Shown here: positions 18,136 through 38,215 of the stretch, piece after piece | Position numbering within the stretch: position 1 is the stretch's first letter | Layout: every line of letters starts with the position of its first letter | Source of the DNA: Sinohyriopsis cumingii | Taxonomy: Eukaryota > Mollusca > Bivalvia > Unionida > Unionidae | Assembly (NCBI GenBank): GCA_028554795.2 | Contig: CM068838.1 | Coordinates: 129,119,428 to 129,183,427, forward strand | Reading direction: 5' to 3' | Length of the DNA: 64,000 bases | Notes under the pieces: model-generated | Told to the model about the DNA's origin: nothing | The model's input: only the letters and a program-made list of their open reading frames with translations | Databases searched by the model: none | Position numbers and translations under genes: made by a program

Positions 18136-18452
18136 AGTAGTGAATAGGGATACCCTACGGACAATGGGAATTAGCATTACAGAACCCCTTGGGACAATCT
18201 ACGGACAATGGAAATTTAACATGGCGAAAAATCGTGGGACAATCTACGGACAAGGGGAATTTAACATGGGAATAAATCGTGGGACAATCTACGGACAAGG
18301 GGAATTTAACATGGGAATAAATCGTGGGACAATCTACGGACAAGGGGAATTTAACATGGGATTTTTTAAAATTTTTAAAAAAAGGGGTAGGCAATTCAAA
18401 GACTATCTCTTTTCGAGAAATATGGCTGGCCCTGAAAAGGGCCTTTGGGTTT
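18136..18452 (+). repeat. Left terminal inverted repeat of element 1
   Basis: It begins AGTAGTGAATAGGG and matches the reverse complement of 37850-38215. Inside are direct repeats of a 45-bp unit (containing ACGGACAAGGGGAATTTAAC): a variant first unit plus three copies here, against four at the right end. That accounts for most of the length difference. The inner edge carries a histone-type stem-loop. A long open frame runs through the 45-bp repeats because 45 is divisible by three. I do not call it a gene. Confidence 0.93.
18428..18443 (-). terminator. Histone-type 3' stem-loop, left terminal repeat
   Basis: On the minus strand this reads GGCCCTTTTCAGGGCC, a 6-bp stem with a TTTC loop. It is preceded by ACCCAAA and followed by a purine-rich CGAAAAGAGATAG element about 12 nt downstream. 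This matches the layout of metazoan replication-dependent histone 3' ends (stem-loop for SLBP, then a histone downstream element pairing with U7 snRNA). It lies about 30 nt after the stop codon of the 18475-18738 frame. Confidence 0.85.
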
Positions 18453-18474
18453 TCTTCTTCTTCTTCTTCTTCTT

Positions 18475-18738
18475 CTAATTTCTTCTTTTCCTCCACCAAC
18501 TTCTTATTTTATCTCCTACACTCTTCTTCTCTTTCTTTTTTTTCTTCTCCTCCTCCTCTTCTTTCTTCTTCTCTTCCTCCTCTTCTTTCTTCCTCTTTTC
18601 ATTTTCTTCTTCTTTTTCAATTTTTTCATTCCATTCTCTCATCCTTATCCTTTCCTCTTCATCCTCCTTTTCCTCCTTTATTTCTTTTAACAGATCACTG
18701 ATGATTACCTTCATTTTTCGTAAATTGTTTATCTCCAT
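18475..18738 (-). CDS. Charged coiled-coil protein of the left-end gene family
   Basis: About 87 residues from an ATG at 18738. A short hydrophobic/charged helix (INNLRKMKVIISDLL) leads into a long Glu/Lys/Arg run likely to form a helix or coiled coil, ending KIRSWWRKRRN. The N-terminal part resembles the middle of the product at 20114-20482 (MENVRMLKITEDLIEEL), so the two are probably paralogues. The matching N-terminal part lies in another frame directly upstream (18741-18863). This is therefore either the second cistron of a pair or the 3' half of a frameshifted gene. The function is unknown. A histone-type stem-loop follows. Confidence 0.6.
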   Translation of the reverse strand: MEINNLRKMKVIISDLLKEIKEEKEDEEERIRMREWNEKIEKEEENEKRKKEEEEEKKKEEEEEKKKKKEKKSVGDKIRSWWRKRRN

Positions 18739-18740
18739 CT

Positions 18741-18863
18741 TCACTCTATGGGACTATATGAGTAGTGATCCTCGTTTAGGTTAACCAACATTTGCTCAAA
18801 CATTCCTAAATTGTCCATGACGTTTTGCAATTTTTCCATTTTGTTAAGGTGGTTTGAAGCCAT
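18741..18863 (-). CDS. Small 40-residue frame, 5' half of the left-end gene
   Basis: It opens at an ATG at 18863, close downstream of a TATA-like box (18914-18919) and the shared left-end promoter module, and stops at 18741. The product (MASNHLNKMEKLQNVMDNLG and onward) is helical and acidic. It occupies the position of the N-terminus of the neighbouring paralogue at 20114-20482. The next frame starts three bases after the stop, so a frameshift that split an ancestral gene is the simplest explanation. A functional bicistron cannot be excluded. Confidence 0.45.
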   Translation of the reverse strand: MASNHLNKMEKLQNVMDNLGMFEQMLVNLNEDHYSYSPIE

Positions 18864-18911
18864 CTTCTTTTTTATTCTTTGCAGAATGGTTTGAACCACG
18901 AATACTGTGGG

Positions 18912-18951
18912 TTCTTATACAAAAAGCGCGGACGTGATGGAAAACATCCCC
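18912..18951 (-). promoter_or_regulatory. Left-end promoter module, copy 1
   Basis: On the minus strand the order is GGGGATGTTTT, CATCACGTCCGCGCTTTTTG, then TATAAG. The same arrangement (GATGTTTT, an ACGTCCGCGCTTT core, and a TATA box 4-5 nt later) precedes the genes at 19295-19636 and 20114-20482. A partial second copy of the core lies upstream at 18994-19019. I infer a shared transcription-factor site next to the core promoter. Confidence 0.7.
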
Positions 18952-19249
18952 TAAAACATAAAATGGATCTTACCTATATCATAACCTAACAACGTGCGGA
19001 CGTGAAGGAAAACATCCCCACTTTTCTCATTTCATATAATCAAACCCTAACTATACTCTCCACATACTCTAAGAAACAATAAAGAAACCCATAATCTACT
19101 ATTCACACCAACCTACTTCATCATTTACAAACACAAACTCACAAACACATACACTTCCACTATTAATAAAGAGTTAGTGTTTATTTTCACACTACTCTAC
19201 CTACACACATTGGCAAATCGATAGTTATTTCTTTTCTAGAGTATTGGGT

Positions 19250-19265
19250 AGCCCTGAAAAGGGCT
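19250..19265 (-). terminator. Histone-type 3' stem-loop 2
   Basis: The minus strand reads AGCCCTTTTCAGGGCT (6-bp stem, TTTC loop), then ACCCA and a purine element AGAAAAGAAATAA. It starts about 29 nt after the stop codon of the 19295-19636 gene. The first stem pair is A-T instead of G-C. Flanks match histone genes. Confidence 0.82.
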
Positions 19266-19294
19266 GTTTTGTTTGGAACTTCATGGGCACCTGG

Positions 19295-19636
19295 TTAATG
19301 GTGGCACCTTCCAGGCCTGGCGCCACATACACATCTTATCCCCCAGTTACTTTTTACCTTTTTGGGGGAGAGAGCAGAGGCAGGATATGTCGCTTCAGAA
19401 TCCCAATTTTCACTCTCTGGGATTTTGAAATTTCTTCTCTCCTTTTCCTCCTCCTCTTCTTTGTTTCTTCTTTCCTCTTTATATCTTCTTTCTTCTTCTT
19501 CTTCTTTTTTTCTTCTTTCCTCCTCTCTTATCCTTCCCTCCTCGACAATGGCTTCCGCGGCCAGTTCATTTAATATGCGCCTGGCATATTCCAGATGCAC
19601 ATGAAGCTCCAACAGTTTCTCAAGTCTCGTGTTCAT
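19295..19636 (-). CDS. Glu/Arg-rich coiled-coil protein, left-end family
   Basis: 113 residues from an ATG at 19636, about 50 nt downstream of a TATAAAT box in the shared promoter module. The N-terminus (MNTRLEKLLELHVHLEYARR) is a predicted helix, followed by a Glu/Arg/Lys-rich stretch. The C-terminus has several Cys and His (CVCGARPGRCHH). Layout and 3' flank match the next gene upstream, and the two intergenic regions are also similar. This points to a tandem duplication of a roughly 0.8-kb gene module. The function is unknown. It is probably expressed under the histone-like 3' signal at 19250. Confidence 0.6.
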   Translation of the reverse strand: MNTRLEKLLELHVHLEYARRILNELAAEAIVEEGRIREEERRKKEEEEERRYKEERRNKEEEEEKERRNFKIPESENWDSEATYPASALSPKKVKSNWGIRCVCGARPGRCHH

Positions 19637-19687: not shown

Positions 19688-19726
19688 ATTTATACTGAAA
19701 GCGCGGACGTGAACTAAAACATCCCC
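19688..19726 (-). promoter_or_regulatory. Left-end promoter module, copy 2
   Basis: The minus strand carries GGGGATGTTTT, then TCACGTCCGCGCTTTC, then a TATAAAT box, about 50 bases before the ATG at 19636. A weaker repeat of the core (CGCGCGGACC on the plus strand) lies at 19778-19803. Confidence 0.72.
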
Positions 19727-20069
19727 TAAAAACATAAAATCCATCTTACCTAGATCATGACCTAAAAACAACAACAACGCGCGGACCTAAAAGAAACACT
19801 CGCTCACGTTTTTATGCTACCCATCACTTCAATTGACTATCCACATACGCAAGGCAATCCAATCTAACCCCAAATATACACCTCAAGCACCCCCCAAAAA
19901 ACAAACAAACATCATTTTAATCTACTATACACATCAATCTATTTTTTCACTTACTAACACACAAACACATACACTCTCACTATCAATGAAGAGTTAGTGT
20001 TTATTTTCACACTACTCTACCTACACACATTGGCAAATGGATCATTACTTCTTTTCTAGAGTATTGGGT

Positions 20070-20085
20070 AGCCCTGAAAAGGGCT
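20070..20085 (-). terminator. Histone-type 3' stem-loop 3
   Basis: The same AGCCCTTTTCAGGGCT stem-loop, ACCCA flank and AGAAAAGAAGTAA purine element as at 19250, placed 28 nt after the stop codon of the 20114-20482 gene. Confidence 0.82.
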
Positions 20086-20534: not shown

Positions 20535-20575
20535 TTATTATAGTGAAAGCGCGGACGTGAAGGAAAACATCCCCC
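20535..20575 (-). promoter_or_regulatory. Left-end promoter module, copy 3
   Basis: On the minus strand: GGGGGATGTTTTCCTTCACG, then TCCGCGCTTTCAC, then TATAATAA. The spacing and order are the same as in copies 1 and 2. Confidence 0.72.
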
Positions 20576-20812: not shown

Positions 20813-21373
20813 CTACTTTAAACAAGGCTGACAACGTTGTGAATGAAATTGTGATTTCCACTGTTGGAAATCATTAGGCCATTGATGGACACTACGTTTC
20901 CTAGCTTGAGACAAAAGATAAGCATAATGGTCACAAAACCATCGATCTACTTTCACATCGTTTCTAGCAGAAGAACGAGGATCAAAATGAGTCACTAAAT
21001 GTTCTAAGGAATAGCCCAGGCTGCGATGATGCAGAAAATACACACAGTACTGTCCACACACCAAGGAATCTGTGCCTTGTAATTTCACGTTATTGAATCG
21101 GGTGGTTTGAGCATTTCTTCTCATATAGTCGATGATATCGTCTTCCAAAGGGGGCAATCCGTACGAATCGAAATATTCCACACATCCTTCTTGAGGAAAG
21201 TAGACGGCTACCCAGTGGGTTCCTGGGAGATGACTTTCGTCCGTGTTGATCACGTAAGCTTGATGGTCTTTAGGTTTGCGATGAGGGAGTTCATCTTTAG
21301 CACAGACGACAGGATTCCAAGAAGCCGTATACGAACTATGGTTCAAAAGGTAATAAAGTTCCCAGGTATCCAT
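20813..21373 (-). CDS. Adenovirus-type maturation cysteine protease
   Basis: 186 residues. The fold landmarks of adenain/Ulp1-like Polinton proteases are present: the catalytic His in GTHWVAVYF, the acidic residue in EYFDSYGLPP, and the nucleophile Cys in LVCGQYCVYFL. Members of this family cut capsid and core precursors during virion maturation. The gene is the most 3' member of the minus-strand structural block, just after the 167-residue zinc-binding-like protein. All three catalytic positions are intact and the length is normal for the family. Confidence 0.93.
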   Translation of the reverse strand: MDTWELYYLLNHSSYTASWNPVVCAKDELPHRKPKDHQAYVINTDESHLPGTHWVAVYFPQEGCVEYFDSYGLPPLEDDIIDYMRRNAQTTRFNNVKLQGTDSLVCGQYCVYFLHHRSLGYSLEHLVTHFDPRSSARNDVKVDRWFCDHYAYLLSQARKRSVHQWPNDFQQWKSQFHSQRCQPCLK

Positions 21374-21394
21374 TGATTTGTGTTTTTTTCTTCT

Positions 21395-21898
21395 TCACAG
21401 GTAATAATAAGTCGTCAATTCGATCCTGACTTTTTGCTTGAAAATGTCTGACGAATAAACGGTTATTCGTTCTGTTTCCTCACTCTGATTCAGGAGAGCT
21501 TCGATACGATGGATCTCTTGAGTGGTTAATGGTGGACAAGAATGTTCACGCAAGTCTTTATACCACTGGTGCAACACGTCTTTGTTTGAGATGAGACTCC
21601 AAGCTTCGTCCAGATACTCGTCCAATTTTTCTTCTTGACTCAACATCAGGCATTTATCGTGTTGAATTTGACTGGGATGATCGTTTTGACATCCATAACA
21701 ATTTTTCTTGATCAATTCCGTCATTTTGTCGACCAAGTGTTTGGCAAAACAGGAGACTAAATGGGCTTCTTGTTCTGGCCATCTCGACTTCATCATGACA
21801 ATTTCTTCGTCTTTGTCTTGGGATTCTCCTTCCACGGTCTCCTCACATTTCATGTCCAAAGTTTCTTCACTAGGTAAAGAGGGATAACAGTCTTCCAT
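21395..21898 (-). CDS. Hypothetical protein with Cys/His cluster
   Basis: 167 residues from an ATG at 21898. An acidic N-terminus is followed by a cluster CYGCQNDHPSQIQHDKC (about residues 69-85) with Cys/His spacing suitable for binding a metal. The C-terminal part is helical. I recognise this as a protein type that recurs beside the protease and capsid genes in Polintons, but its role is not known to me. It ends 22 bases before the protease start and follows the major capsid gene by 5 bases, so the three are probably coordinately expressed. Confidence 0.7.
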   Translation of the reverse strand: MEDCYPSLPSEETLDMKCEETVEGESQDKDEEIVMMKSRWPEQEAHLVSCFAKHLVDKMTELIKKNCYGCQNDHPSQIQHDKCLMLSQEEKLDEYLDEAWSLISNKDVLHQWYKDLREHSCPPLTTQEIHRIEALLNQSEETERITVYSSDIFKQKVRIELTTYYYL

Positions 21899-21903
21899 GG
21901 CTT

Positions 21904-23229
21904 CTAGTAATCTAGAATGACTTCTCTCAAACTGTTGATTTCTATCGTATTGTCAAATTCTGCATACAAGATCACGTTCAACGTTGGATCAGCAGGGTCT
22001 CGATTTGCAAACTGAATTTCCACACGAATCTGGCCAGATTTTATAGGGTGGAAATGTCCCTCGTCGCTGCCTTGGTCTGGAGTGAAATCGAAAGCCCACA
22101 AAGCGTAGCCTCCTGCATAATCTTCGTACGTAATACCGTGACTGGTATTGGTTCCTAACTGTCCGGTGGCTTCGTACAGGGACAAGTACGATCTCAAGTA
22201 ATTGTTCTGGGCAAAGTTAGGCTCAAAGGGTCGTGTACACAAGGTCTTGCCGTCACGACTGACTTCGATTTTGGACACGCTAGAGTGTCGAAACTCAAAA
22301 GGATTTTCGTTGTGAAGTCCATTGAAAGCTGAATTCCTGACGATACCAACGATCAAACGCTTGGGTAACTGTCCTTGGAACAGATGATCTTCGATCATGG
22401 ATCGCTGTCCAACAGGAATGGTGAACGTTTTCACTTCCACACGTCGTATGGGATACTTGGCGGTCGTTCTGCTCAACGTCTGACTGATGTCGTTTCCCAC
22501 TTTAGGTAACACTTCCACACGGAGTACGTAAAGTCTGGCTTCTTGGATAACAGTTTTGTATTCGTTGGCATGGGCCATCAAATGGAAAGCGGCAGTGCTA
22601 CGATTCAGTCTCAGGCGAATATCAACTCCGTTCAGTAAATACTTTTCTTGTAACCACATGTCCAAATGCAAACGATCCATCAGTTCTAAACTACGTCCTT
22701 GCAAAATTTTAGTTCTACGTGTGTTAAACCCCACATTGTGAGGATTGTCATCTTCTGTCAGGGCTGTGTCGCTAAACGTGCCTGCACCTGCCGTGTCAGG
22801 TTTCCATACCACGCAAGCATCCAGATGAGTATTCTTGGCTTCTTTTCCGTACGTCAAGAGATTTTCCAAGTAGGCACGATATGGGTAAGTATCCATGCTG
22901 CTGCTGACCAGTTTGTTATTTAAGTACAAGTCCACTTCGCTGAACAAGGAATGCATGAAATTGTTGACGGGCGCTACCCTATCATTGGCTCCAGGATTGG
23001 TGTTGTCAGTTTTGATCACTTTGACTTTCAAATACAGGTAACTGCTATTCAGATCGATGTAATCTTCGGGTTGTCCTTTGATTTCGAACTCGATGGGAGC
23101 GGAATCCGTCAAAGAGGAGACGGGATGAAATTCCACCCACTGGGATTCTTGCATCGTCATCATGGTGGGGGGCATGGCAAACATATCCAGTTCCGTCTTG
23201 GAACAAGCACATGACTCTCGGTGCATCAT
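21904..23229 (-). CDS. Major capsid protein, double jelly-roll
   Basis: 441 residues. The N-terminal region includes PIEFEIKGQPEDYIDLNSSY, and about residues 90-125 include LFSEVDLYLNNKLVSSS and YPYRAYLENLLTYG. These are hallmarks of the conserved Polinton protein identified as the double-jelly-roll major capsid protein. Family knowledge: trimers form the pseudo-hexameric capsomers of an icosahedral shell. The frame is complete, in the structural block between the core-like protein (23242-23655) and the Cys/His protein, with the minor capsid and protease genes nearby. Length agrees with family members. Confidence 0.92.
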   Translation of the reverse strand: MMHRESCACSKTELDMFAMPPTMMTMQESQWVEFHPVSSLTDSAPIEFEIKGQPEDYIDLNSSYLYLKVKVIKTDNTNPGANDRVAPVNNFMHSLFSEVDLYLNNKLVSSSMDTYPYRAYLENLLTYGKEAKNTHLDACVVWKPDTAGAGTFSDTALTEDDNPHNVGFNTRRTKILQGRSLELMDRLHLDMWLQEKYLLNGVDIRLRLNRSTAAFHLMAHANEYKTVIQEARLYVLRVEVLPKVGNDISQTLSRTTAKYPIRRVEVKTFTIPVGQRSMIEDHLFQGQLPKRLIVGIVRNSAFNGLHNENPFEFRHSSVSKIEVSRDGKTLCTRPFEPNFAQNNYLRSYLSLYEATGQLGTNTSHGITYEDYAGGYALWAFDFTPDQGSDEGHFHPIKSGQIRVEIQFANRDPADPTLNVILYAEFDNTIEINSLREVILDY

Positions 23230-23241
23230 TTTTTCTGTGTC

Positions 23242-23655
23242 TCAATAATCGAAAACGTCTAAGTCTCGAACGGTTCTTCTTTTCTTGGTTTTTCTAGCTT
23301 GAAGTCTGGTGAAAGGGTGTTTTCTTCGTCTCTTTCTGCCTTGTCCTTGCTGAATGCCTGACTCGGTAACGTGCAGGTCATTTATAGGTGTGTCTCGTCG
23401 GCCCAAAATGTCTTTACCCGTTTGCAGCAGGACATTTTTGCCTGCCCTCATGAAGGCTTCTTTAGGGTTTTGTTTGTCGATGATGACATTTTGGAGAAAT
23501 TCTTTGCCTTGCGTCAGTGCCGCATCTTTCAAGGCGTGCAATCCGCGTGTCACCATCGGTTTCAACACCGGGGCCACCGAACGAAAGGCCGATTTTAACA
23601 TGTCTCCTAAACCGTGTCCTCGCTGTCGTGCAACCCCTTGGTACACTGGATACAT
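23242..23655 (-). CDS. Basic amphipathic core or pVI-like protein
   Basis: 137 residues. The N-terminus GHGLGDMLKSAFRSVAPVLK is an amphipathic helix with the look of Polinton and adintovirus virion proteins compared with adenovirus pVI/pX. The C-terminus is very basic (KRRRKHPFTRLQARKTKKRR). It probably binds DNA or membranes inside the particle. It lies between the minor and major capsid genes, and a counterpart sits in the same position in element 2 (41884-42345), which also has a GDGLGDVI start. Functional assignment is by position and composition. Confidence 0.75.
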   Translation of the reverse strand: MYPVYQGVARQRGHGLGDMLKSAFRSVAPVLKPMVTRGLHALKDAALTQGKEFLQNVIIDKQNPKEAFMRAGKNVLLQTGKDILGRRDTPINDLHVTESGIQQGQGRKRRRKHPFTRLQARKTKKRRTVRDLDVFDY

Positions 23656-23662
23656 GACTTAC

Positions 23663-24592
23663 TTACGAATCGTGAGAGAACCGTTTTCGAAAATGGAGTT
23701 TCACCGTGACTTTTCCTTTGGTAAATGGAATATTTTGTCCCAGATCTCCTTTTATAGTAATGTTGACCGTGTCCAAATACGACTTGCTGACGGGCAAATA
23801 GTGAGGATGGACAAATTCGCGGTGGACGTGGTAAGTGTTTCCACCTTCCTCGTCAGCGTTCGTGGCAGAATCCACTTTGAAAGGAATGACACGCAGTAAC
23901 GGCACGGAGGTGTGTCCCACCACGTTATACTCCACCACATCGGAGTACACGAACATCAAATTCAGTCCTTGGTTCAGTTCTACTGGGGTACGAAATAACT
24001 TGCTAAAAGACTCGTTGTCGTAAACGATGGGTAATTCGTTGTTCTTGAGTATGTTCATTCTCAGGTTCATGTCTCCGCCCAACATGTCAAACAATTCAGG
24101 ACAAAATAAAATGGACATGATTTTACTCCGCTCAAATTTCATCGAGAAGCGACGAGCTGTTTTGTGGTACTCCATGGTGACACTTTTGTTAACATGCTCC
24201 AAAGCTTTCCCAAACACGCCATTAAACTTGGCAGCTATGATGTTGACCAAATGTTGACCACTGAAATAATAGCCTGGGGAAATGAAAAAGTGGTAGGTCC
24301 ACTTTTGAGTTTTCTCATTATAGGTTTTATTGTCATATATGACTTTCTTATTCAACTCCTGTTGCAATGACTCGTCATGAACTTCCACATGAAAAAAATT
24401 TTGATTGGGAAGGACATTGAGGACTTGGGTCGGGTGAATGATTTCCACTAAAGCCACTTCCCAATGGGCTTCGTGATCTAAGGGGATGGCCTGAGGTAAT
24501 TTGGCCGTGTAACAGCACAACGTGTTGTGGGGAAACACCTCCATGGAACTGTCACTGGGTAAGGTTAAGTAAAATTGGTTTTGGTGACTCAT
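23663..24592 (-). CDS. Minor capsid (penton-type) protein
   Basis: 309 residues. The start FYLTLPSDSSMEVFPHNTL and the following region about residues 40-55 (HWEVALVEIIHPTQ) are characteristic of the conserved Polinton protein assigned as the single-jelly-roll penton base at the capsid vertices. The C-terminus LGQNIPFTKGKVTVKLHFRK matches the usual end of this family. It overlaps the next upstream gene by 4 bases (24589-24592). The frame is intact. Confidence 0.88.
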   Translation of the reverse strand: MSHQNQFYLTLPSDSSMEVFPHNTLCCYTAKLPQAIPLDHEAHWEVALVEIIHPTQVLNVLPNQNFFHVEVHDESLQQELNKKVIYDNKTYNEKTQKWTYHFFISPGYYFSGQHLVNIIAAKFNGVFGKALEHVNKSVTMEYHKTARRFSMKFERSKIMSILFCPELFDMLGGDMNLRMNILKNNELPIVYDNESFSKLFRTPVELNQGLNLMFVYSDVVEYNVVGHTSVPLLRVIPFKVDSATNADEEGGNTYHVHREFVHPHYLPVSKSYLDTVNITIKGDLGQNIPFTKGKVTVKLHFRKRFSHDS

Positions 24593-25011
24593 AATTCCAG
24601 AGTTCTGTGGCTGTCCGAGGGGTTAGTGGATGTCAGAGGCGTGTCTCCGTCCAAAATGGGGTTCTGGTTGTGGTTGTGGTTGGAGTGGTGACTGGCACTG
24701 GCACTGGACACAACGTTCCCGTTCGAGGAGAATTTCAGGGAGGGATTGGGAAGCAGGTAACCGATGCAACTGCTCAATAAAATGGTCCACAATTGTTTGT
24801 CTCCTTGTTGCAAACTCAAATTCGCGATGGCTGCCCCGATGACACAATACACCACGAAGATTTGGCAGAAAAAGACGATTTGCGTTTTAGGCACACGTTC
24901 TCCACACCACACCCACAAGGGTTGTTTTTGTAAATCTTGCACAGAAGAACTAGGGGAAGAAGGACTGGTCGACGTAGCTGCGTCTGCTGTGTGAAAGGGC
25001 ATGATGGTCAC
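24589..25011 (-). CDS. Small membrane protein conserved in Polintons
   Basis: 140 residues with two hydrophobic stretches: about 43-67 (TQIVFFCQIFVVYCVIGAAI) and about 75-90 (LWTILLSSCIGYLLPNP). They follow a Trp/Cys-rich WVWCGERVPK motif. The C-terminus is Ser/His/Asn-rich and probably disordered. The motif order is one I associate with a small membrane protein found in many Polintons, but no function is established to my knowledge. A TATAAAAAG box lies at about 25016-25024 inside the 3' end of the integrase gene. Confidence 0.75.
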   Translation of the reverse strand: MTIMPFHTADAATSTSPSSPSSSVQDLQKQPLWVWCGERVPKTQIVFFCQIFVVYCVIGAAIANLSLQQGDKQLWTILLSSCIGYLLPNPSLKFSSNGNVVSSASASHHSNHNHNQNPILDGDTPLTSTNPSDSHRTLEL

Positions 25012-26120
25012 TTCTTCTTTTTATAGTCGATGACTTGCGAAGCGTCGATCCAAGAATCGAAACTGGGTGGATATCCTTTCCAACGTACTTTGACTTCTTT
25101 GACACGTCGTTTGCCCACTTTACGGGTTCTGCGTTCGAGAATGCTTTCGATGTCGTACACGTCGTCTTCTTTTTTGGTGACACGTTGTAACTCGGGCAAA
25201 TAAAACGTTCCTTTGAGTACTTCTCCGTTCATGTCTTCCAATTTATAGACGGCAGGATGACGGCCATGCACTCGTCCAGTGACGCGAAACAATTCGGTCG
25301 TCCAGTTAGGTAAGTAACTTTTGTCGAAAGTGCGTTTGGTTTTGCCAATGCGCACCCAATCTCCTACGGTCAACTCTCCACTTTTCTTGGGGACAGCCCT
25401 CGTCGGGGACGTACCAAACAGACGCTCAAACACCAGCACTTCGTTGTCGGGAGTCACTTCTTGCGGGGCACGTCCGATGCTTCGATGGTAAGATTGGTTG
25501 TACGCTTGCACCAGGTGCGGTAAGATGTCGATGTACTTCAGAGTGTGGTGATGCGTAAAATATTTCCACATGCGTTCTTTCAAAGTACGTTGAAAACGTT
25601 CCACGATGCTGGCTTTGGTTTCGGGATTCTCGGTGGTAAAAAAATGAATGTCACGTTTCTTTAATTCTTTTTGGAAAGCTTGGTTCAGAAATTCGGTGCC
25701 TTTGTCCGTTTGCCATCGAAGAGGGCGACGACCGCTTTGTTTCAACACCCGTTGCAGGGCTCGCACTAACTCGCTGCTCGATTTGGAAGTCAAGGGCACG
25801 ACCCAGGCAAATTTGGAAAAGACGTCGATGACACAAAACAAATATTTGTAGCCGCGATTGTAGCTGGCCAAATGAGAGACATCGGCTAAATCGGCTTGCC
25901 ATTGATGATCGATGCCTTCCACTCGGGTGCGACTTCTGGCAAACTTGCGTCGAATGGGTTTGTGTAAAGTGTAGGTAGCTTGTTCTTGTAACCATCGTTG
26001 CACTTGAGGTAAACGGAGACTTTTCAGTCGAGTTTTGGCAGCACGATACAATTTTTGAACTCCTGCGTAACCTGCAGGATGCGAGGGATCGTAGTAAATG
26101 CTGGCTAAGACTTTTTCCAT
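25008..26120 (-). CDS. Retrovirus-type integrase with chromodomain
   Basis: About 370 residues from the ATG at 26120. An in-frame ATG at 26156 would overlap the preceding gene. The N-terminal helical/zinc-like region is followed by an rve core with the three acidic residues: Asp in HQWQADLADV, Asp in WQTDKGTEF and Glu in SIVERFQRTL. A C-terminal chromodomain carries EVKVRWKGYPPSFDSWI. In this family the enzyme inserts the element and makes the 6-bp duplication, and the chromodomain may guide it to particular chromatin. The frame is complete. The element 2 integrase lacks the chromodomain. Confidence 0.94.
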   Translation of the reverse strand: MEKVLASIYYDPSHPAGYAGVQKLYRAAKTRLKSLRLPQVQRWLQEQATYTLHKPIRRKFARSRTRVEGIDHQWQADLADVSHLASYNRGYKYLFCVIDVFSKFAWVVPLTSKSSSELVRALQRVLKQSGRRPLRWQTDKGTEFLNQAFQKELKKRDIHFFTTENPETKASIVERFQRTLKERMWKYFTHHHTLKYIDILPHLVQAYNQSYHRSIGRAPQEVTPDNEVLVFERLFGTSPTRAVPKKSGELTVGDWVRIGKTKRTFDKSYLPNWTTELFRVTGRVHGRHPAVYKLEDMNGEVLKGTFYLPELQRVTKKEDDVYDIESILERRTRKVGKRRVKEVKVRWKGYPPSFDSWIDASQVIDYKKKK

Positions 26121-26140
26121 TTTTTGTGTTGGTTGATGTG

Positions 26141-26761: not shown

Positions 26762-26810
26762 GGGGTTGTCAGGGGTCGATTCTGAGATCTTGGGACTTTC
26801 GAAGGCCTTT

Positions 26811-29337: not shown

Positions 29338-29343
29338 TTTATT
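29338..29343 (-). terminator. Poly(A) signal after the accessory block
   Basis: AATAAA on the minus strand, 8 nt past the stop of the 29351-29680 gene and just upstream of the ATPase promoter. Confidence 0.55.
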
Positions 29344-29350
29344 GAATGTT

Positions 29351-30578: not shown

Positions 30579-30590
30579 GAATAGGTTATA

Positions 30591-31046: not shown

Positions 31047-31076
31047 GAACAGATTATTATGGTAAAAAAAGTTACT

Positions 31077-31808
31077 TCAATGTCTCGGTCCCACTAAAGG
31101 TAAGTAATGACAATTCGGTGACCATCGAGCATGTTCTACGTAGGCCGAATCTTGCGGTTCCCAGTGGTGAAGTGACACACTGCAACTGAAGCACTTGACT
31201 TTATCTCCTTCGCCCAAGTAGAAAAATCCGGCTCTGGCTAATTCTTCGGGGGTCGGTCCTCCCAGATACTTAGGCCATTTTCCTTTGAACGATTGAAGAC
31301 GATTTTCAAAGTCGCAGTATTCCGACAAACGCACAGGAAACGAATATTCGTTTTTCACAGGTTCGTTTCGATGAGGGTTGAGTGAAATGGGCAGGAGTTT
31401 GCTCAGGGCTGGATGACATCCGTAGGGAGGTAAACGTGAAGGTCGACATTCCCCTTTAAAACGAAACCCAGTAAAATGTCCAAGAGGACGAGCAGCATCG
31501 CTTTCGCATCCCACAGGTTTGACACGCACAGCATCACTTTCCATGACAGGGGTAGGGGCACTAAAGTTCCCATGATGCTTTACGGCATCGCTCAGGTCAC
31601 AAGGTACAGCATCGGTCCCATCGCAAGGCTCACAATCGCACTCGTCTGCAAACTCCGTTACGCAATTACAATGGTAACCACATGGACAATCGCAGTTTCC
31701 TTCCGGACATTTTCCGTCGCAATGTCTGGGTCTTATCCATCCAGTAGAGAAAGATACAGCTTTTTTACAATCCCCAAACTGGAACGATGTCTTTTTCAAA
31801 GTATTCAT
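31077..31808 (-). CDS. BIR-domain (IAP-like) protein
   Basis: 243 residues. The C-terminal part is a BIR domain: FENRLQSFKGKW at about 167-178, then the zinc ligands Cys206, Cys209, His226 and Cys233 with the exact C-x2-C-x16-H-x6-C spacing of baculoviral IAP repeats. The N-terminal third (residues 30-70) is very rich in Cys. No RING finger follows, unlike many IAPs. Family members restrain caspases or control cell division, so an anti-apoptotic role is likely. A TATATAAA box lies at 31866-31875 in the 3' end of the polymerase gene. Confidence 0.9.
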   Translation of the reverse strand: MNTLKKTSFQFGDCKKAVSFSTGWIRPRHCDGKCPEGNCDCPCGYHCNCVTEFADECDCEPCDGTDAVPCDLSDAVKHHGNFSAPTPVMESDAVRVKPVGCESDAARPLGHFTGFRFKGECRPSRLPPYGCHPALSKLLPISLNPHRNEPVKNEYSFPVRLSEYCDFENRLQSFKGKWPKYLGGPTPEELARAGFFYLGEGDKVKCFSCSVSLHHWEPQDSAYVEHARWSPNCHYLPLVGPRH

Positions 31809-31853
31809 CTTGTTCGCTCGGTCTTGGTAGTCCCAATGAACTATCGATCTTGC

Positions 31854-34800
31854 CTAGGGTTCCTTTTTTATATAAAGACCAATACCGATGTGACCGTACG
31901 GTAAGGTGAAATGATTGGGAAGTCGAACTCGCTTCTGGTACACAATTTGATAGACTTTTTCCAGGGGTCGACTGACGATGTGGTGAGTGGGTAAACGTAC
32001 AATCTTGTTCGGTTGGTAAGTGGTCACTTTAAAGTTTCCATCCTCTCCCGATTGCAAGGCTTCTTTCAATACCCCAAAATTGACCACTCGACTGGTACGA
32101 TAATTCAGAGTCAGTCCTTTCACTTTGCACGTCGTGTGCACTTCTCCTTGTTTGTCCCGGTATTCGTAGCCGTAATTTTTGGGACCGCCACTGACGAAAC
32201 TTAGAATCTTGTCGTCGGGATGCTCGTCTGTCCAGGCTCCTAAACGGTCTCCTTCGATGTTAGGGTGATGTTGAATCGGGTGATGGATGTAAATGCAACT
32301 GTCCGTGTCAAAGTACAGGACGCGTTCTTCTAACAGTTCTAAAGCTTCGTACAATTTTAAGCGAGCATGGGCTGTCACGTAAGCCGCAATGATGACATTT
32401 CCAAAAGGGTCGTCTTGTACAAAGTCCAGATCTTCTTCGTAATTGACCAAGATCAAATTCTCTCGAACGACGTCCACGTGTTTCATGTATTTGGTTTTGT
32501 CGTGAATCATCTGGAAGTAGCGGGAAGGTTCTGTCAAATATTCCGTCTTGGGTAAACACGGTCGTTGTGCCATTTTACCCCACAAGCAATTTAACATCAC
32601 TTTGGCAAACGATCGCCTGCCTTCGTTTTTATCGATGTGGTCTAAAGTGATGCCTTCTTGTTCCAGGTATTTCTCTTTGAATTTTATTTGGTCTTCGGGA
32701 GTGTGACACCAGGAAGGATAGCCGCTGGCTTCTTGCTTCAGTTTCAAAAAGGCATCCACGTAGTCTGCGAAAATGCCTTTCTGACTGGGATCACCCTTGC
32801 GGTACTGTTGTGTCTTGGGAAAGTGGCAAATCTCGTATACTTCTAACAGTTCGTATCCCATGTCCAGAGCTTTGAACAATTCTACGCTGACCCAGGTTCC
32901 CGTCAAGGCCCGTTCTTCCTGGCTGTGATGACAAGGCTGGTCTTGGTTGCACGTTTCGGCACAAGTACGGCACAAGGGAAACATCAGTTTGCCTTGACAA
33001 TGGTGAGGTAAGACGGGATGGTAGAGGTTCGTGGGAGGCAAAACTTTGCACTTGATCAAGCCTTCGTATTGTCGAATGTTTTTCAGGTCGATGTGTTCCG
33101 TCAGCAATTGCGGGTGCCCTACAGGAAAGCGACAATATTTACACACGTAGGGATACAGCGAACACACGTCCAAGTATTTGATTTCTTCTCCTTTCTTTTC
33201 GTCGGCTTGGTACAGCAAACAGGTGGCATTGGTCCTTCCTCCGTACAAACTATCCCTCGGGTTCAGCGGGTCCATGAACTGGTAACTTTCCACGAGGCGT
33301 TTAAACTCGGGATCGGTTTTCATACGGTGATCGTACTCGTGTTCCCACATTTCCACCACTTGGTATCCTTGCTGTTCTAACTTTAGGCGTCGCTGACAAG
33401 TGTCCTGGTACAAGTCTTCCATGGTTCGTTGCAAAAACTGATTTTTAGTGCCACGGTCAGGGTAACAGACGGGACATCCGTGAAATAAGCAACCGTTAAA
33501 CTCGTACACGATCTTGGGGTTTTCTAAGTCCCAGCCATCAACCGAATACGTTCCAATGGTCTTTTCGCCTCCTCCGTTGCGGGCATGCTGAATCCATTTG
33601 TCTTCCTTGTCGCACAAGTAATGTAACCAACGTAGGGCTTTGACCGAGTATTGACGCTTGACATAGTGGGTCGTTTGAGGACTGATGACAGCCACGGTAT
33701 TTTCAGGCATGAATCGTTGGCGGTACACTAAGGAACACGCTTTGGCAATGGTGCAAGCTTCTTTCAAAGGATCGACCCCTCCGTGTTCCATGAACAGTTC
33801 TCGAAATTTTCCACAGCAACGCCGTAAAATGTCCACGTCGGAACGACAATACTTTAGCATTTCTTCCTGAAAGTCGAAAGGGTCCGAGGCGTGAATCTGG
33901 TACCAAGCGTAGAAAGCTTCTCGTTGTTCGGTACGCATGTTGTCGGGGTCGTAATAGTGAGCCTCAGGCAAATGGGGTAGAACGGCATGTTGATTGGCTT
34001 CCGTATTGAAAAAGTGTGGAAAGTACCCTTTAGCCATTTCTGTCATTCCAAACGTTTTAGGCATTCGACTCAAAGGCATGGCCAAATAGCTCATCGAATC
34101 TTTAAACTGTACTTGTCCCACTTGCATGAAAATGATTTTGGCTCCGTTCAAAGTCACTTTAGGACGCTCGGTGCCTTGTTCCGTATAGTACCTCAAAAGA
34201 AACTGTCCATCGTATCCGGAGAAATTGTGAGCCATCACCGTGGCATGACAATGACAATCTCCGTAACATTCGATGTCCTCTTGGCTCCACGTCTTGTCGA
34301 CGGGGTCTAAGACCCATTGGGCAAAATCGGCTAACGTGTTTGGTCCCCGAAAGATTTTTTCACGCCCTCCGGGTATCTTGCTACAGTGAGGGCAATGACT
34401 GAAGATAGGTTCTTGAATGCACTTCTCGCACGCTCGATGAGCCACGCAGAAATTAGGAATGTGAATGCCGGTCTCTTGCATGCATTCGAAATCGAAAAAG
34501 ATGAAATTGCCTTTCTTCTTGTGACCGTCCTCTTTCTCTGGTGGGGGTTGGTATTTTTGCACGTAGCATTGGTGTTCCAAGTCCACGATGTGGTGACAAA
34601 TGTGACATTTTTTCTTTCCTCGACATACGTGTGCCTTGGCAGCATTGGTACATATGACTTGTTCACACGTAGGGCACAATCTCAGGAGTTGACAAGCACA
34701 TTTCTTCTGTGAACCTTGCGTTTTCAGATGTTGTTGGTAACAGGTAGGGCTGACAAACGTGCGCAGACAAGTGGAACAAGGCACTGGTTCTTCGCTCAGA

Positions 34801-35903
34801 CAGGGTGAAGAGGCCAAACATCCTGAGCATTTCAATCCACAATGCTTGTGTTGCTCTCGATTATTATAACCATGGTCACATTTCTCACAGTAATAACCGT
34901 ATCCCAGAAATCCGGTGATACTGGTAATCGTATCGAAATGGTCATCGTGATGATAAACATGAATGTATTTTCCGTCCTTAAAATCTTGGCCTCGAAACAA
35001 TAGAGGTCCGCGCATTTCTTGAGGGTGCACTTTCAAGGTGTATCGTGGAGCTAGGACATCTTGCAATTTTTGCATCTCAGGAATGCCGCAGGGTGTGTCT
35101 TTGGGCAATCCGGCTTGTTGTAACAAGAGTTCTGCTTCGTTTCGTTGTTTGGCTCGGTCGGAACGTTGAATAGTGTCCCAGGTTCTTTTCCATTCTACCG
35201 TGTCGTTCTTGTTGGCATAGGTTCGTCCCACCACGATGGCACGGGCTAAACACATCTGGTCTTGAGGGTTGTTAATTCGGACGAGACTTGTTTTGGTGTT
35301 GCGAAGGTCGTCTACCAATAACATCTTTTTGCGTCCAGTCCCTTGAGGAGGAGAGACGTGGGTCATGTCCAGTGTGGCTTTTCCATCGGTGATGTCAAAC
35401 TGGTCATTAGATTGTTGCACGTGTTGAATCTTGTCCATGACTTTGGAAGCAGTCAATTCTGCAGGGGTGCTAAACTCGATCCAAACAGGGGATTTCAAAC
35501 CGTCGTGTTGTATGGAAAGTCTCAAGCGATCGTCTTCTTTGGGTTGACATTGCTGCTTGAGTGAAGTGAGCAAAGAATCCCACACCTCGGTGATGAACAC
35601 TTCTGCTTTCTCTAACGGCACTTCAGCCTTGAAATCTTTAAACTTCACCGTGTATTTGTAAGCCGTGGTTCTAAATTTTCTAGAGGAGCGCTTTTCCGTC
35701 TCTCGAATGGAATAGTACTTTTCAGGGTTGACTAAGGGTGGTGAACTTGGTTTAGAGGGTTCGGATTCTGGTTCACTCATGTCCTCTTCAAAATCACTGG
35801 CATGAATTTGTGCCAAGATTTCAGCCCTGGTACGAGGCGATAGATCACGTTTCTGCCTCTTACTTTCTTCTTCTTTCTTCTCGAATGAATGGGATCGTTT
35901 CAT
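31854..35903 (-). CDS. Protein-primed family B DNA polymerase
   Basis: 1349 residues, the replicative polymerase. A long N-terminal region with basic/acidic disorder and Cys/His clusters (about 338-450) precedes the 3'-5' exonuclease: ExoI FFDFEC (about 470), ExoII NFSGYDGQF (about 560) and ExoIII YCRSDVDIL (about 687). The palm has motif A YLDVCSLYPYV (about 910), motif B KVMLNCLWGK (about 1105) and motif C YFDTDSC (about 1198). A FHGCPVCYP insert typical of Polinton polymerases is near 808. All catalytic residues are present. It fires from a promoter shared with the zinc-knuckle gene. Confidence 0.96.
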   Translation of the reverse strand: MKRSHSFEKKEEESKRQKRDLSPRTRAEILAQIHASDFEEDMSEPESEPSKPSSPPLVNPEKYYSIRETEKRSSRKFRTTAYKYTVKFKDFKAEVPLEKAEVFITEVWDSLLTSLKQQCQPKEDDRLRLSIQHDGLKSPVWIEFSTPAELTASKVMDKIQHVQQSNDQFDITDGKATLDMTHVSPPQGTGRKKMLLVDDLRNTKTSLVRINNPQDQMCLARAIVVGRTYANKNDTVEWKRTWDTIQRSDRAKQRNEAELLLQQAGLPKDTPCGIPEMQKLQDVLAPRYTLKVHPQEMRGPLLFRGQDFKDGKYIHVYHHDDHFDTITSITGFLGYGYYCEKCDHGYNNREQHKHCGLKCSGCLASSPCLSEEPVPCSTCLRTFVSPTCYQQHLKTQGSQKKCACQLLRLCPTCEQVICTNAAKAHVCRGKKKCHICHHIVDLEHQCYVQKYQPPPEKEDGHKKKGNFIFFDFECMQETGIHIPNFCVAHRACEKCIQEPIFSHCPHCSKIPGGREKIFRGPNTLADFAQWVLDPVDKTWSQEDIECYGDCHCHATVMAHNFSGYDGQFLLRYYTEQGTERPKVTLNGAKIIFMQVGQVQFKDSMSYLAMPLSRMPKTFGMTEMAKGYFPHFFNTEANQHAVLPHLPEAHYYDPDNMRTEQREAFYAWYQIHASDPFDFQEEMLKYCRSDVDILRRCCGKFRELFMEHGGVDPLKEACTIAKACSLVYRQRFMPENTVAVISPQTTHYVKRQYSVKALRWLHYLCDKEDKWIQHARNGGGEKTIGTYSVDGWDLENPKIVYEFNGCLFHGCPVCYPDRGTKNQFLQRTMEDLYQDTCQRRLKLEQQGYQVVEMWEHEYDHRMKTDPEFKRLVESYQFMDPLNPRDSLYGGRTNATCLLYQADEKKGEEIKYLDVCSLYPYVCKYCRFPVGHPQLLTEHIDLKNIRQYEGLIKCKVLPPTNLYHPVLPHHCQGKLMFPLCRTCAETCNQDQPCHHSQEERALTGTWVSVELFKALDMGYELLEVYEICHFPKTQQYRKGDPSQKGIFADYVDAFLKLKQEASGYPSWCHTPEDQIKFKEKYLEQEGITLDHIDKNEGRRSFAKVMLNCLWGKMAQRPCLPKTEYLTEPSRYFQMIHDKTKYMKHVDVVRENLILVNYEEDLDFVQDDPFGNVIIAAYVTAHARLKLYEALELLEERVLYFDTDSCIYIHHPIQHHPNIEGDRLGAWTDEHPDDKILSFVSGGPKNYGYEYRDKQGEVHTTCKVKGLTLNYRTSRVVNFGVLKEALQSGEDGNFKVTTYQPNKIVRLPTHHIVSRPLEKVYQIVYQKRVRLPNHFTLPYGHIGIGLYIKKEP

Positions 35904-36490: not shown

Positions 36491-36746
36491 ACAAGGAGAA
36501 AGAAGAAGTCTATGAACTTTTAATTAAAGTGTTGTGTTGTGAATTGTGAATTGAATTGTAAAAAATGGAGAAAAGAATAAATGAATGATATAAGTTAAGT
36601 GTCTTTGAGTTATGATTTTAAAATAAGAAGCTACACTCACGCACTCATACACAGACACGTACTATAAGGGTAAAATGGGTGGGTTATTTTTTTTTTTTTG
36701 AGTTATTGGCAAATTGAAATTGTATTTCTTTTCGAGAAATGTGGGT
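36491..36746. other. Convergent 3' region between two genes
   Basis: Holds the poly(A) signal of the plus-strand zinc-knuckle gene and, from about 36700, the 3' module of the minus-strand gene at 36791. That module (TTGGCAAAT, TTTCTTTTCGAGAAAT) is shared with the left-end genes. Confidence 0.6.
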
Positions 36747-36762
36747 GGCCCTGAAAAGGGCC
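36747..36762 (-). terminator. Histone-type 3' stem-loop 4
   Basis: GGCCCTTTTCAGGGCC on the minus strand, followed by ACCCACA and a CGAAAAGAAATA purine element. It lies 28 nt after the stop of the 36791-37375 gene. Both stem and flanks fit the metazoan histone consensus. Confidence 0.87.
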
Positions 36763-36790
36763 TTTTTTTCTTCATGGTGAAGGGGTGAGT

Positions 36791-37375
36791 TTAAGCAATC
36801 AACTTTAACTGCCTTATGCCTTTGCCACGGCCAAGGCCTACTTCTGGACTGCGTAATGTTGATGATGATTGGGTTGAAATCACTAAGGGTGGTACGGTAG
36901 GCTTAGTCACAGGGTTGACGTGTTTAGCTCGGGAAGGTCGTATTCTCTTCGGTCGTGATAAAGAAGTCTGATACATTTGTTTCAGACTTCTTAACTCCGC
37001 TAAAATGTCCAACAGTACCGTGGCCATTTGATTTTCACCCTCTTGTTTCTTTGCTGCTACTTCTTCTTCTTCTTCTTGCTGTTGCTGCTGTTGTTTTTTT
37101 CTTACCTCTTCTTCTTGTTGCTGTTGCTGTAGGAGAAAAGCTTGTTCCGCTTCCTTTTGTCGTTGCATAAATTTCTCCAATTCTTCTTTCTGTCTCTGTC
37201 TAAAATTCTCCACTTGCGGTAATGAAGAAGCTAACGAAGGTTCCGGAACAAATTCTTGCGAGGAGAGAAAATCCACAAAATCCCAATTCACTTCTTCTGA
37301 AAGTAAGTCCGAGTTCCCTTGGGCAGTCTCCCCTGCTGGTGCAGCCCAATGGATCGTTTTCTGAGTTTCCGTCAT
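36791..37375 (-). CDS. Gln/Glu-rich coiled-coil protein, right-end gene
   Basis: 194 residues. A mixed N-terminus with an acidic/aromatic patch (VNWDFVDFLSSQEF) is followed by a long Gln/Glu/Lys coiled coil (about 55-120), a helix (LLDILAELRSLKQMY) and a basic PKRIRPSRAKH segment that could be a nuclear signal. The acidic/aromatic patch looks like a transactivation-type segment, as speculation. It has the same 3' module and stem-loop as the left-end genes, and a promoter shared with the plus-strand gene at 37595. I do not recognise a family. Confidence 0.7.
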   Translation of the reverse strand: MTETQKTIHWAAPAGETAQGNSDLLSEEVNWDFVDFLSSQEFVPEPSLASSLPQVENFRQRQKEELEKFMQRQKEAEQAFLLQQQQQEEEVRKKQQQQQQEEEEEVAAKKQEGENQMATVLLDILAELRSLKQMYQTSLSRPKRIRPSRAKHVNPVTKPTVPPLVISTQSSSTLRSPEVGLGRGKGIRQLKLIA

Positions 37376-37422
37376 GTTGAATCACTGTCGCATAGATTGA
37401 CTGCACACAAGCGTTAGCGAAT

Positions 37423-37550
37423 CTATATTGACTACGTGACGTCACAGACTGCTCTCTTCGGATTGGATGCGGGCTGACTGAATTCTGTAACGCGTGATCG
37501 GATTGGTGAATGAACTCAATCCGTTTCAATCCCTCCTGTCCCTATAAATA
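37423..37550. promoter_or_regulatory. Bidirectional histone-like promoter
   Basis: Between the minus-strand gene (ATG 37375) and the plus-strand gene (ATG 37595) lie a CRE, TGACGTCA (37437-37444), two exact CGGATTGG boxes (37459-37466 and 37499-37506, reverse CCAAT type), a plus-strand TATAAATA (37543-37550) and a minus-strand CAATATAG (37423-37430). Divergent pairs driven by CCAAT and CRE-type sites, with stem-loop 3' ends, are the layout of histone H2A-H2B pairs. Confidence 0.65.
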
Positions 37551-37594
37551 AGCGCCGTTCACTGCATTGATTCACCTATTCTCGTCGCTTCAAG

Positions 37595-37837
37595 ATGTGG
37601 ACTACAGTTGAGTCATCCACCCTTGTGTCTTCCATGATGTTTCGGACAGACTTGCTTATGTATGTCCGATCGAAGTGGACCGTTGTCCACAGGACCAACA
37701 CCAGCCTGTGGATACGTAGGATCTACGTCGAAAGACAAGGATGCCTGAAAAGAGTGCTGATGTACGGACCAACAGTAAGACGCAGCCTAAGGAGAAGAAG
37801 AAGACCAATGCGGTGCCATTTATGTTTATGTTTATGA
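37595..37837 (+). CDS. Small basic protein, right-end plus-strand gene
   Basis: 80 residues from the first ATG after the TATAAATA box, about 45 bases downstream. The C-terminus is strongly basic (RRSLRRRRRPMRC). No family is recognised, and it is not a histone. A second frame (ATG 37741, 36 residues, MPEKSADVRTNSKTQPKEKK and onward, stop at 37849-37851) overlaps it, and either or both may be used. A canonical histone-type stem-loop begins 21 nt after this stop. Confidence 0.5.
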   Translation: MWTTVESSTLVSSMMFRTDLLMYVRSKWTVVHRTNTSLWIRRIYVERQGCLKRVLMYGPTVRRSLRRRRRPMRCHLCLCL

Positions 37838-37849
37838 ATACATTAACAT

Positions 37850-38215
37850 AAACCCAAAGGCCCTTTTCAGGGCCAGCCATATTTCTCGAAAAGAGATAGT
37901 CTTTGAATTGCCTACCCCTTTTTTAAAAATTTTAAAAAAAAAAATCCCATGTTAAATTCCCCTTGTCCGTAGATTGTCCCACGATTTATTCCCATGTTAA
38001 ATTCCCCTTGTCCGTAGATTGTCCCACGATTTATTCCCATGTTAAATTCCCCTTGTCCGTAGATTGTCCCACGATTTATTCCCATGTTAAATTCCCCTTG
38101 TCCGTAGATTGTCCCACGATTTTTCGCCATGTTAAATTTCCATTGTCCGTAGATTGTCCCAAGGGGTTCTGTAATGCTAATTCCCATTGTCCGTAGGGTA
38201 TCCCTATTCACTACT
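37850..38215 (-). repeat. Right terminal inverted repeat of element 1
   Basis: Reverse complement of the left repeat, with one extra 45-bp unit. It ends ...CCCTATTCACTACT and is followed by CACGCA. The inner edge begins with the stem-loop flank ACCCAAAGG. Confidence 0.93.
37859..37874 (+). terminator. Histone-type 3' stem-loop 5, right terminal repeat
   Basis: GGCCCTTTTCAGGGCC on the plus strand, preceded by ACCCAAA and followed after 10 nt by CTCGAAAAGAGATAG. It is the inverted partner of the left-end copy, so both outermost genes end in a stem-loop carried by the terminal repeat. Confidence 0.87.

What the first reader, a model, noticed from the sequence alone, without database searches (positions are those of the whole stretch)
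18428..37874. Terminal genes of a Polinton end in histone-mRNA stem-loops
Five perfect 16-nt stem-loops (18428-18443, 19250-19265, 20070-20085, 36747-36762 minus; 37859-37874 plus) have a 6-bp stem and TTTC loop. Four lie 28-31 nt after a stop codon; the fifth lies 21 nt after one (8 nt after an alternative stop). Each has ACCCA-type or CCAGCC flanks and a purine-rich downstream element (GAAAAGA). This is the form of replication-dependent histone 3' ends, used by SLBP and U7 snRNP. I see no histone gene in the element. Core genes of the same element use AATAAA. It suggests that the outer genes are made as poly(A)-less, S-phase-tuned messages, a strategy I do not recall for Polintons.
Basis: partly seen in the sequence, partly recalled or inferred. 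Interest (0 to 1): 0.92.

Follow-up and report, generated by a model that had tools for sequence, protein, structure and literature searches.

The report
Mobile virus disguises genes as histones
A virus-like mobile element in an animal genome ends its outer genes with the same RNA stem-loop signal as the host's histone genes and starts some of them with the host's histone promoter sequence, which suggests that it borrows the cell's special machinery for making histones during DNA replication.

Summary
Five perfect 16-nt stem-loops sit at the stated places, each with GAAAAGA 13 nt downstream; Rfam Histone3 scores are 31.0-41.2 bits, 3 of 5 above the cut-off of 34. They belong to a 20,080-bp Polinton/adintovirus-like element with TIRs and a 6-bp target duplication; two lie inside the TIRs. 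The host assembly shows what they resemble: all five genes of its histone repeat (H1, H2A, H2B, H3, H4) end in the same stem-loop with a similar downstream element, 27-38 nt after the stop. The left-terminal genes also carry a host histone promoter box, 24/24 identical to H2B and 21/21 to an H4 variant; eight core-gene promoters do not stand out. The box occurs 31,393 times in the genome against 0 for the reversed control; 30 of 34 sampled box clusters have a stem-loop downstream. Right gene B is a conserved basic protein, dN/dS 0.11. Best reading: the terminal genes are expressed as mimics of replication-dependent histone genes. RNA ends were not testable, host U7 and SLBP were not identified, and the right-end promoter match was not significant.

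The parts
18136..38215 (.). Polinton/adintovirus-like element, 20,080 bp, termini AGTAGTG...CACTACT, flanked by target duplication CACGCA at 18130-18135 and 38216-38221
18136..18453 (.). left TIR (318 bp), contains SL1 and 45-bp tandem repeats
   Evidence: 316 of 316 aligned bases identical to the right TIR, gaps only
37850..38215 (.). right TIR (366 bp), contains SL5 and 45-bp tandem repeats
18428..18443 (-). SL1 histone-type stem-loop, inside left TIR
   Evidence: 35.6 bits RF00032
18408..18418 (-). downstream element TCTCGAAAAGA of SL1
19250..19265 (-). SL2 histone-type stem-loop (A-U outer pair)
   Evidence: 31.0 bits, below cut-off 34
19230..19240 (-). downstream element TCTAGAAAAGA of SL2
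20070..20085 (-). SL3 histone-type stem-loop (A-U outer pair)
   Evidence: 33.1 bits, below cut-off 34
20050..20060 (-). downstream element TCTAGAAAAGA of SL3
36747..36762 (-). SL4 histone-type stem-loop
   Evidence: 41.2 bits
36727..36737 (-). downstream element TCTCGAAAAGA of SL4
37859..37874 (+). SL5 histone-type stem-loop, inside right TIR
   Evidence: 35.6 bits
37884..37894 (+). downstream element TCTCGAAAAGA of SL5
18925..18948 (-). histone promoter box of left gene 1 (24 of 24 identical to host H2B), TATAA at fixed offset
18994..19015 (-). second, upstream box of left gene 1 (variant)
19701..19722 (-). box of left gene 2 (variant)
19776..19796 (-). upstream H4-type box of left gene 2 (21 of 21 identical to host H4 promoter)
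20549..20570 (-). box of left gene 3
18475..18863 (-). left gene 1: charged coiled-coil-like protein; in this copy split into two ORFs in different frames (18741-18863 and 18475-18738)
   Evidence: no Pfam match over cut-off
19295..19636 (-). left gene 2, 113 aa
20114..20482 (-). left gene 3, about 122 aa if it starts at the first ATG after the box (the 162-aa ORF begins upstream of the box)
   Evidence: start inferred
36791..37375 (-). right gene A, 194 aa, ends 28 nt before SL4
37595..37837 (+). right gene B, 80 aa basic protein, ends 21 nt before SL5
   Evidence: conserved frame, dN/dS 0.11 over 23 copies
20813..35903 (-). core genes: adenain-like protease (20813-21373), capsid candidate (21904-23229), integrase (25008-26120), ATPase (28524-29267), BIR protein (31077-31808), PolB (31854-35903); ordinary TATA and AATAAA signals, no stem-loop

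Best explanation
The element belongs to a very abundant Polinton/adintovirus-like family whose outermost genes (three on the left, two on the right) are dressed as replication-dependent histone genes. The left genes start at a TATA box behind a host histone promoter box. All five genes end with the histone stem-loop followed by a U7-type downstream element. Inferred mechanism: host histone-gene activators start the left genes; on all five pre-mRNAs host SLBP binds the stem-loop, U7 snRNP pairs with GAAAAGA, CPSF73 cuts about 5 nt after the stem, and a short mRNA without poly(A) is made that is stable and translated mainly while the cell replicates DNA. The core genes use ordinary TATA and AATAAA signals. 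Placing the outermost signals in the TIRs gives both ends the same terminator and may stop transcription before it reaches the replication ends. Shown: near-identity of the signals with those of host histone genes, their placement, their retention across copies, coding constraint on right gene B. Inferred: SLBP/U7 use, lack of poly(A), S-phase timing, purpose.
For: Five stem-loops with downstream element at fixed spacing after stops. The same ending on all five genes of the host histone repeat and on a separate H2B array. Histone promoter box on the left genes: 24/24 with H2B, 25/26 with H1, 21/21 with H4; 0 of 200 shuffles reach the score against H1 and the H2B array for each of the three left promoters. 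Of 8 BLAST hits under E 0.01 between the histone repeat and the 64 kb, 5 are these boxes, 2 are the SL1/SL5 blocks, 1 is GA-rich simple sequence. Other copies: 30 of 34 box clusters have a stem-loop downstream, controls 0 and 2 of 34; 69 of 72 loose stem-loop matches in 32 sources have the downstream element at the same offset, the other 3 being unrelated; the downstream element is more constant (0.993, 0.997) than spacer and flanks (0.75-0.90) in 27 right ends. Right gene B dN/dS 0.11.
Against: No RNA data. Host U7 not identified: RF00066 best 29.3 bits, below the cut-off of 34, and motif hits unconvincing. SLBP domain not found at E 0.001 (control genomes also empty, so not informative). The right-end promoter is not significantly like a histone promoter. 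The box was not found on the host H3 gene, and near H2A it lies on the other strand, so it is not on every histone gene. SL2 and SL3 score below the Rfam cut-off and have AATAAA 65 nt downstream, so polyadenylation there is possible. Right-end copies were picked by their stem-loops, which biases stem-loop retention. Right gene A is shortened or absent in 9 of 27 copies, and 4 of 34 box clusters lack a stem-loop.
Confidence: 0.78

Rival explanations
1. Captured but inert: an ancestor picked up pieces of host histone genes, and the signals are passengers that no longer work.
For: Near-identical short blocks shared with host histone genes.
Against: Signals sit only at gene starts and ends, in three independent instances, with stop-to-stem spacing of 21-31 nt; the downstream element stays constant while spacer and flanks change among copies 81-97% identical to the window; an outer pair changes from G-C to A-U with pairing kept.
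Confidence: 0.08
2. Back-up or dual use: the genes are mostly polyadenylated downstream, and the stem-loop only tunes a part of the messages.
For: AATAAA 65 nt after SL2 and SL3; histone genes H4 and H2B of the host also have AATAAA or ATTAAA within 250 nt downstream.
Against: None within 250 nt after SL1 and SL5, and only one 223 nt after SL4.
Confidence: 0.1
3. Decoy: transcribed stem-loops of many copies serve to soak up SLBP or U7 and disturb host histone supply.
For: 40,581 matches to the stem-loop consensus in the genome against 2,615 for the reversed control.
Against: Tight placement just after stops of genes, one of them under coding constraint, and the promoter box point to gene expression; decoy use could only be a side effect.
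Confidence: 0.03
4. A DNA hairpin for replication or transposition, or chance.
For: SL1 and SL5 lie in the TIRs.
Against: Three loops lie outside the TIRs; Histone3 scores, downstream element, spacing to stops and match to host histone genes; random sequences give at most 2.
Confidence: 0.01

Closest known systems
Metazoan replication-dependent histone genes (SLBP/U7 3' ends)
   Same: Stem-loop of the RF00032 type, downstream purine element, short distance from stop, and on the left genes the promoter box of this host's H2B, H1 and H4
   Different: Products are not histones; signals ride on a mobile virus-like element
Polintons/adintoviruses (meldviruses)
   Same: PolB, rve integrase with chromodomain, A32-like ATPase, weak adenain-like protease, TIRs, 6-bp duplication
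   Different: Histone-type promoter box and 3' ends; the held papers listed show no mention of this in titles or abstract starts
Terminal early regions of adenoviruses
   Same: Accessory genes at the ends of a linear DNA genome with TIRs (recalled)
   Different: Adenovirus early mRNAs are polyadenylated (recalled); no histone-type ends known to me

Membership tests
Polinton/adintovirus | protein-primed type B DNA polymerase | tested here: met
   PF03175 DNA_pol_B_2, E 1.7e-41; protein priming itself not testable; the N-terminal OTU-like domain named in PMC11071296 was not seen by Pfam
Polinton/adintovirus | rve integrase with C-terminal chromodomain | tested here: met
   PF00665 E 1.4e-14 and PF00385 E 1.1e-7
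Polinton/adintovirus | A32-like packaging ATPase | tested here: met
   PF04665 31.8 bits over cut-off 22.8
Polinton/adintovirus | adenain-like protease | tested here: inconclusive
   Peptidase_C5 E 0.012 below cut-off; S273R protease chain E 2.2e-4
Polinton/adintovirus | double jelly-roll major capsid protein | tested here: inconclusive
   no sequence match; single-sequence model pLDDT 36
Polinton/adintovirus | TIRs and 6-bp target duplication | tested here: met
Replication-dependent histone-type transcription unit | conserved 16-nt stem-loop shortly after the stop | tested here: met
   5 of 5 present; 3 of 5 over the RF00032 cut-off
Replication-dependent histone-type transcription unit | purine-rich histone downstream element pairing with U7 | tested here: inconclusive
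   element present at 5 of 5 and like the host histone genes'; host U7 not found, so pairing untested
Replication-dependent histone-type transcription unit | mRNA without poly(A), made in S phase | not testable with these tools
   no RNA data
Replication-dependent histone-type transcription unit | histone-gene promoter elements of the same host | tested here: met
   met for the three left genes; not met for the two right genes
Histone genes | product is a histone | tested here: not met
   no histone family among the Pfam matches shown for the terminal products (for left gene 1 the best 25 of 39 weak matches were shown)

The most novel reading that the evidence does not exclude
A whole family of animal Polintons runs its terminal genes as mimics of host histone genes, at the 3' end of all five and at the promoter of the left three, and so makes a class of non-histone, poly(A)-less, SLBP/U7-dependent mRNAs timed to S phase. 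With an order of 10,000 copies, most of the histone-type 3' ends encoded in this host genome would be viral.
Probability: 0.6. Interest if true: 0.93.

Novelty: new variant of a known kind. Interest (0 to 1): 0.88.

Why it matters
[quoted passage not shown] A mobile virus that uses this ending, with the host's histone promoter box on some genes, would break that rule and tie part of a DNA virus's expression to host DNA replication. It would give a natural, highly replicated set of non-histone substrates for testing what SLBP/U7 processing needs, and raise the question of how a host copes when mobile copies of the signal outnumber its own genes.

Tried and rejected
Relatives elsewhere: IMG/VR searched with the capsid candidate, PolB, integrase and an ATPase alignment, and with two stem-loop patterns, gave none; only six peptide patterns or fewer per protein were used, so nothing follows about other hosts. 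Chance and DNA-hairpin readings were rejected. I suspected an H2A/H3-like promoter at the right end; shuffles did not support it. U7: the RF00066 hits and seven hand-picked motif hits were rejected; one commonest motif hit looks like Polinton integrase coding DNA by eye, four others look like a dispersed repeat by eye, and none of the seven matches an Rfam family up to E 1. A tandem array of stem-loops at C1:5.07-5.09 Mb first looked like a satellite; it is host H2B genes. The single-sequence capsid model was useless. Literature searches; only listings and starts of abstracts were seen, several lists capped (20 of 439 papers, 20 of 24, 20 of 8,254, 15 of 18, 15 of 35), plus passages of PMC11071296.
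Full report
WHAT IS THERE. The window holds a 20,080-bp element at 18136-38215 with termini AGTAGTG...CACTACT and a perfect 6-bp target duplication CACGCA. Its TIRs (318 and 366 bp) agree at 316 of 316 aligned bases and differ only by gaps, one of 50 bases. It encodes a 1349-aa DNA polymerase (DNA_pol_B_2), an rve integrase with chromodomain, an A32-like ATPase and a BIR protein, a protease weakly like adenain and a capsid candidate that sequence methods do not recognise. By gene content, TIRs and duplication it is a Polinton/adintovirus; the capsid fold was not shown. Identical TIRs and long open frames point to a recent insertion (inference).

THE STEM-LOOPS. Five perfect 6-bp hairpins with TTTC loops are the only ones in the 64 kb; 300 Markov-1 random sequences gave 0.40 on average and at most 2. 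RF00032 scores are 41.2, 35.6, 35.6 (over the cut-off of 34), 33.1 and 31.0 bits, and no other RF00032 match appears in the window up to E 5. Each lies 21-31 nt after a stop codon on the sense strand and is followed, after 9 nt, by TCTNGAAAAGA. SL1 and SL5 are one sequence, at the inner edge of the two TIRs, 292 and 341 nt from the termini; SL2 and SL3 belong to a 147-nt duplication at 90%. So there are three independent instances. Between instances only the stem-loop and about 24 nt after it match (0.65-0.95 identity in 20-nt steps); flanks fall to 0.05-0.50. SL2/SL3 have A-U where the others have G-C at the outer pair, which keeps the stem paired.

THE HOST'S OWN HISTONE GENES. The window lies in an unnamed 2.90-Gb assembly. 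Its histone genes form a repeat of about 8.29 kb with H3, H4, H2B, H2A and H1. All five end in a perfect stem-loop, 28, 27, 34, 35 and 38 nt after the stop, RF00032 35.0-39.4 bits. Four of the five carry CTAGAAAAGA downstream; H2A has CCCGAAAAGG. A separate 1.85-kb array of H2B-only genes has the same stem-loop with CTGTAAAAGA. The element's signals thus match what this host uses for histones.

THE PROMOTER BOX. Upstream of the three left-terminal genes lie five copies or variants of a box, at its clearest GATGTTTTCCNTCACGTCCGCGCT; for the three copies next to the genes TATAA follows at the same offset of 19. Host H2B has GATGTTTTCCATCACGTCCGCGCT (24 of 24 identical to window 18925-18948), H1 25 of 26, and the H4 promoter has TTTCTTTTAGGTCCGCGCGTT, 21 of 21 identical to window 19776-19796. 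In a BLAST of the histone repeat against all 64 kb, 8 hits have E below 0.01: five are these boxes, two the SL1 and SL5 blocks, one a GA-rich simple sequence. In local alignments against 200 shuffles, no shuffle reaches the score of any left promoter against H1 or the H2B array; against the repeat's H2B it is 0, 1 and 0; against H4 0, 0 and 11; against H3 and H2A there is no signal (17-197 shuffles reach it). Eight core-gene promoters do not stand out (at least 8 of 200 shuffles reach every one of their 48 scores), and neither does the right-end divergent promoter in either direction (at least 10 of 200). The promoter claim is therefore limited to the left genes. The box was not found on the host H3 gene, and near H2A it lies on the other strand.

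OTHER COPIES. The stem-loop consensus has 40,581 genome matches against 2,615 for the reversed control; the box has 31,393 against 0. In the first 5.1 Mb of contig C1, 34 clusters of boxes occur; 23 have a consensus stem-loop within 3.5 kb downstream on the same strand, against 0 upstream and 2 on the opposite strand. The other 11 were fetched: all match the element's left-end genes, 7 have an A-type or mutated stem-loop with downstream element, 4 have none. So 30 of 34. In that stretch 26 right ends show the SL4/SL5 pair, which by plain scaling gives an order of 10,000 copies in the genome (extrapolation from one stretch of one contig). These 26 and the window's right end were picked by their stem-loops, which biases stem-loop retention; the script also asked for a loose downstream element (up to 3 changes) but dropped none of the 27. 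The downstream element is nearly constant, 0.993 (SL5) and 0.997 (SL4) mean column identity, against 0.90 and 0.86 in the spacer, 0.88 and 0.90 in the 5' flank and 0.75 and 0.86 in the 3' flank; the stem-loops, used for picking, stand at 0.995 and 0.998. Identity of these copies to the window over about 1.2 kb runs from 0.81 to 0.97. Of 72 loose matches in 32 sources, 69 are followed by a downstream element at the same 9-nt offset, 66 of them with intact GAAAAGA; the 3 others are unrelated.

THE GENES. Right gene B (before SL5) is real: 26 of 27 right ends hold a frame of 63 aa or more, 24 of these with the stop 19-24 nt before the stem. Over 23 copies dN/dS is 0.11 in frame, 1.31 and 2.50 in the other frames, and 67% of differences fall on third positions. 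It is a basic protein with no Pfam match; a low-confidence model has strands and one helix (pLDDT 54). Right gene A (before SL4) is 183 aa or longer in 18 of 27 and short or absent in 9; constraint is weaker, dN/dS 0.43 in 15 long frames. The left genes code for small charged proteins; gene 1 is split between two frames in this copy. None looks like a histone.

HOW IT LIKELY WORKS. From the known histone pathway: SLBP binds the stem-loop, U7 snRNP pairs with the purine-rich element, CPSF73 cuts between them, and the poly(A)-less mRNA is stable and translated in S phase. The element has these cis parts on five genes, with a host histone promoter box on three. Core genes have TATA boxes, and AATAAA follows the protease, ORF 29351-29737 and the zinc-knuckle gene. 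The most likely reading is a two-class expression plan: terminal accessory genes as histone mimics, core genes as ordinary mRNAs. Not shown: RNA ends, SLBP/U7 binding, timing. Host U7 and SLBP genes were not identified; intact histone genes with these signals imply that the machinery exists (inference). AATAAA 65 nt after SL2 and SL3 leaves room for some polyadenylation there.

COMPARISON AND NOVELTY. Searches of held papers for Polinton or adintovirus with histone, stem-loop or polyadenylation terms and for histone stem-loops in viruses or transposons showed nothing that describes this in the titles and abstract starts listed; lists were capped and most subscription papers are not held. It works like a histone gene at its ends; it is not a histone gene. 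It is a Polinton-type element with a new way of expression, hence a new variant of a known kind.

Noticed in passing
window 41262-58900: A second virus-like element with an ATPase 31% identical to the first element's and, by eye, an integrase and a helicase gene. It has no RF00032 match up to E 5 and no box beyond a loose 13-mer match at 44870, so it served as a contrast.
   Followed up: partly
window 31077-31808: The element encodes a BIR (inhibitor of apoptosis) domain protein, Pfam E 1.7e-23.
   Followed up: no
window 36038-36490: A plus-strand zinc-knuckle (CCHC) gene, with AATAAA at 36576, lies between PolB and the right terminal genes.
   Followed up: no
window 30060-31046: Two neighbouring ORFs share a 209-nt direct repeat at 88% and similar N-termini: a recent gene duplication of unknown function.
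   Followed up: no
window 18190-18361 and 37945-38180: 45-bp tandem repeats inside the TIRs, with one unit more on the right.
   Followed up: no
L009 and L036 (G000:C1:5072500-5092499): The host has a separate tandem array of H2B-only genes, unit about 1.85 kb, 7 units seen, besides its 8.29-kb histone repeat.
   Followed up: partly
G000 whole assembly: The element family is extremely abundant: 31,393 exact promoter boxes and about 38,000 stem-loop matches over control; scaled from 5.1 Mb, an order of 10,000 copies.
   Followed up: partly
L063 and L067: Left-end pieces of the element lie next to DNA resembling the window's second element (matches to window 58757-58886 and 43724-44423), which suggests nested insertions.
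   Followed up: no
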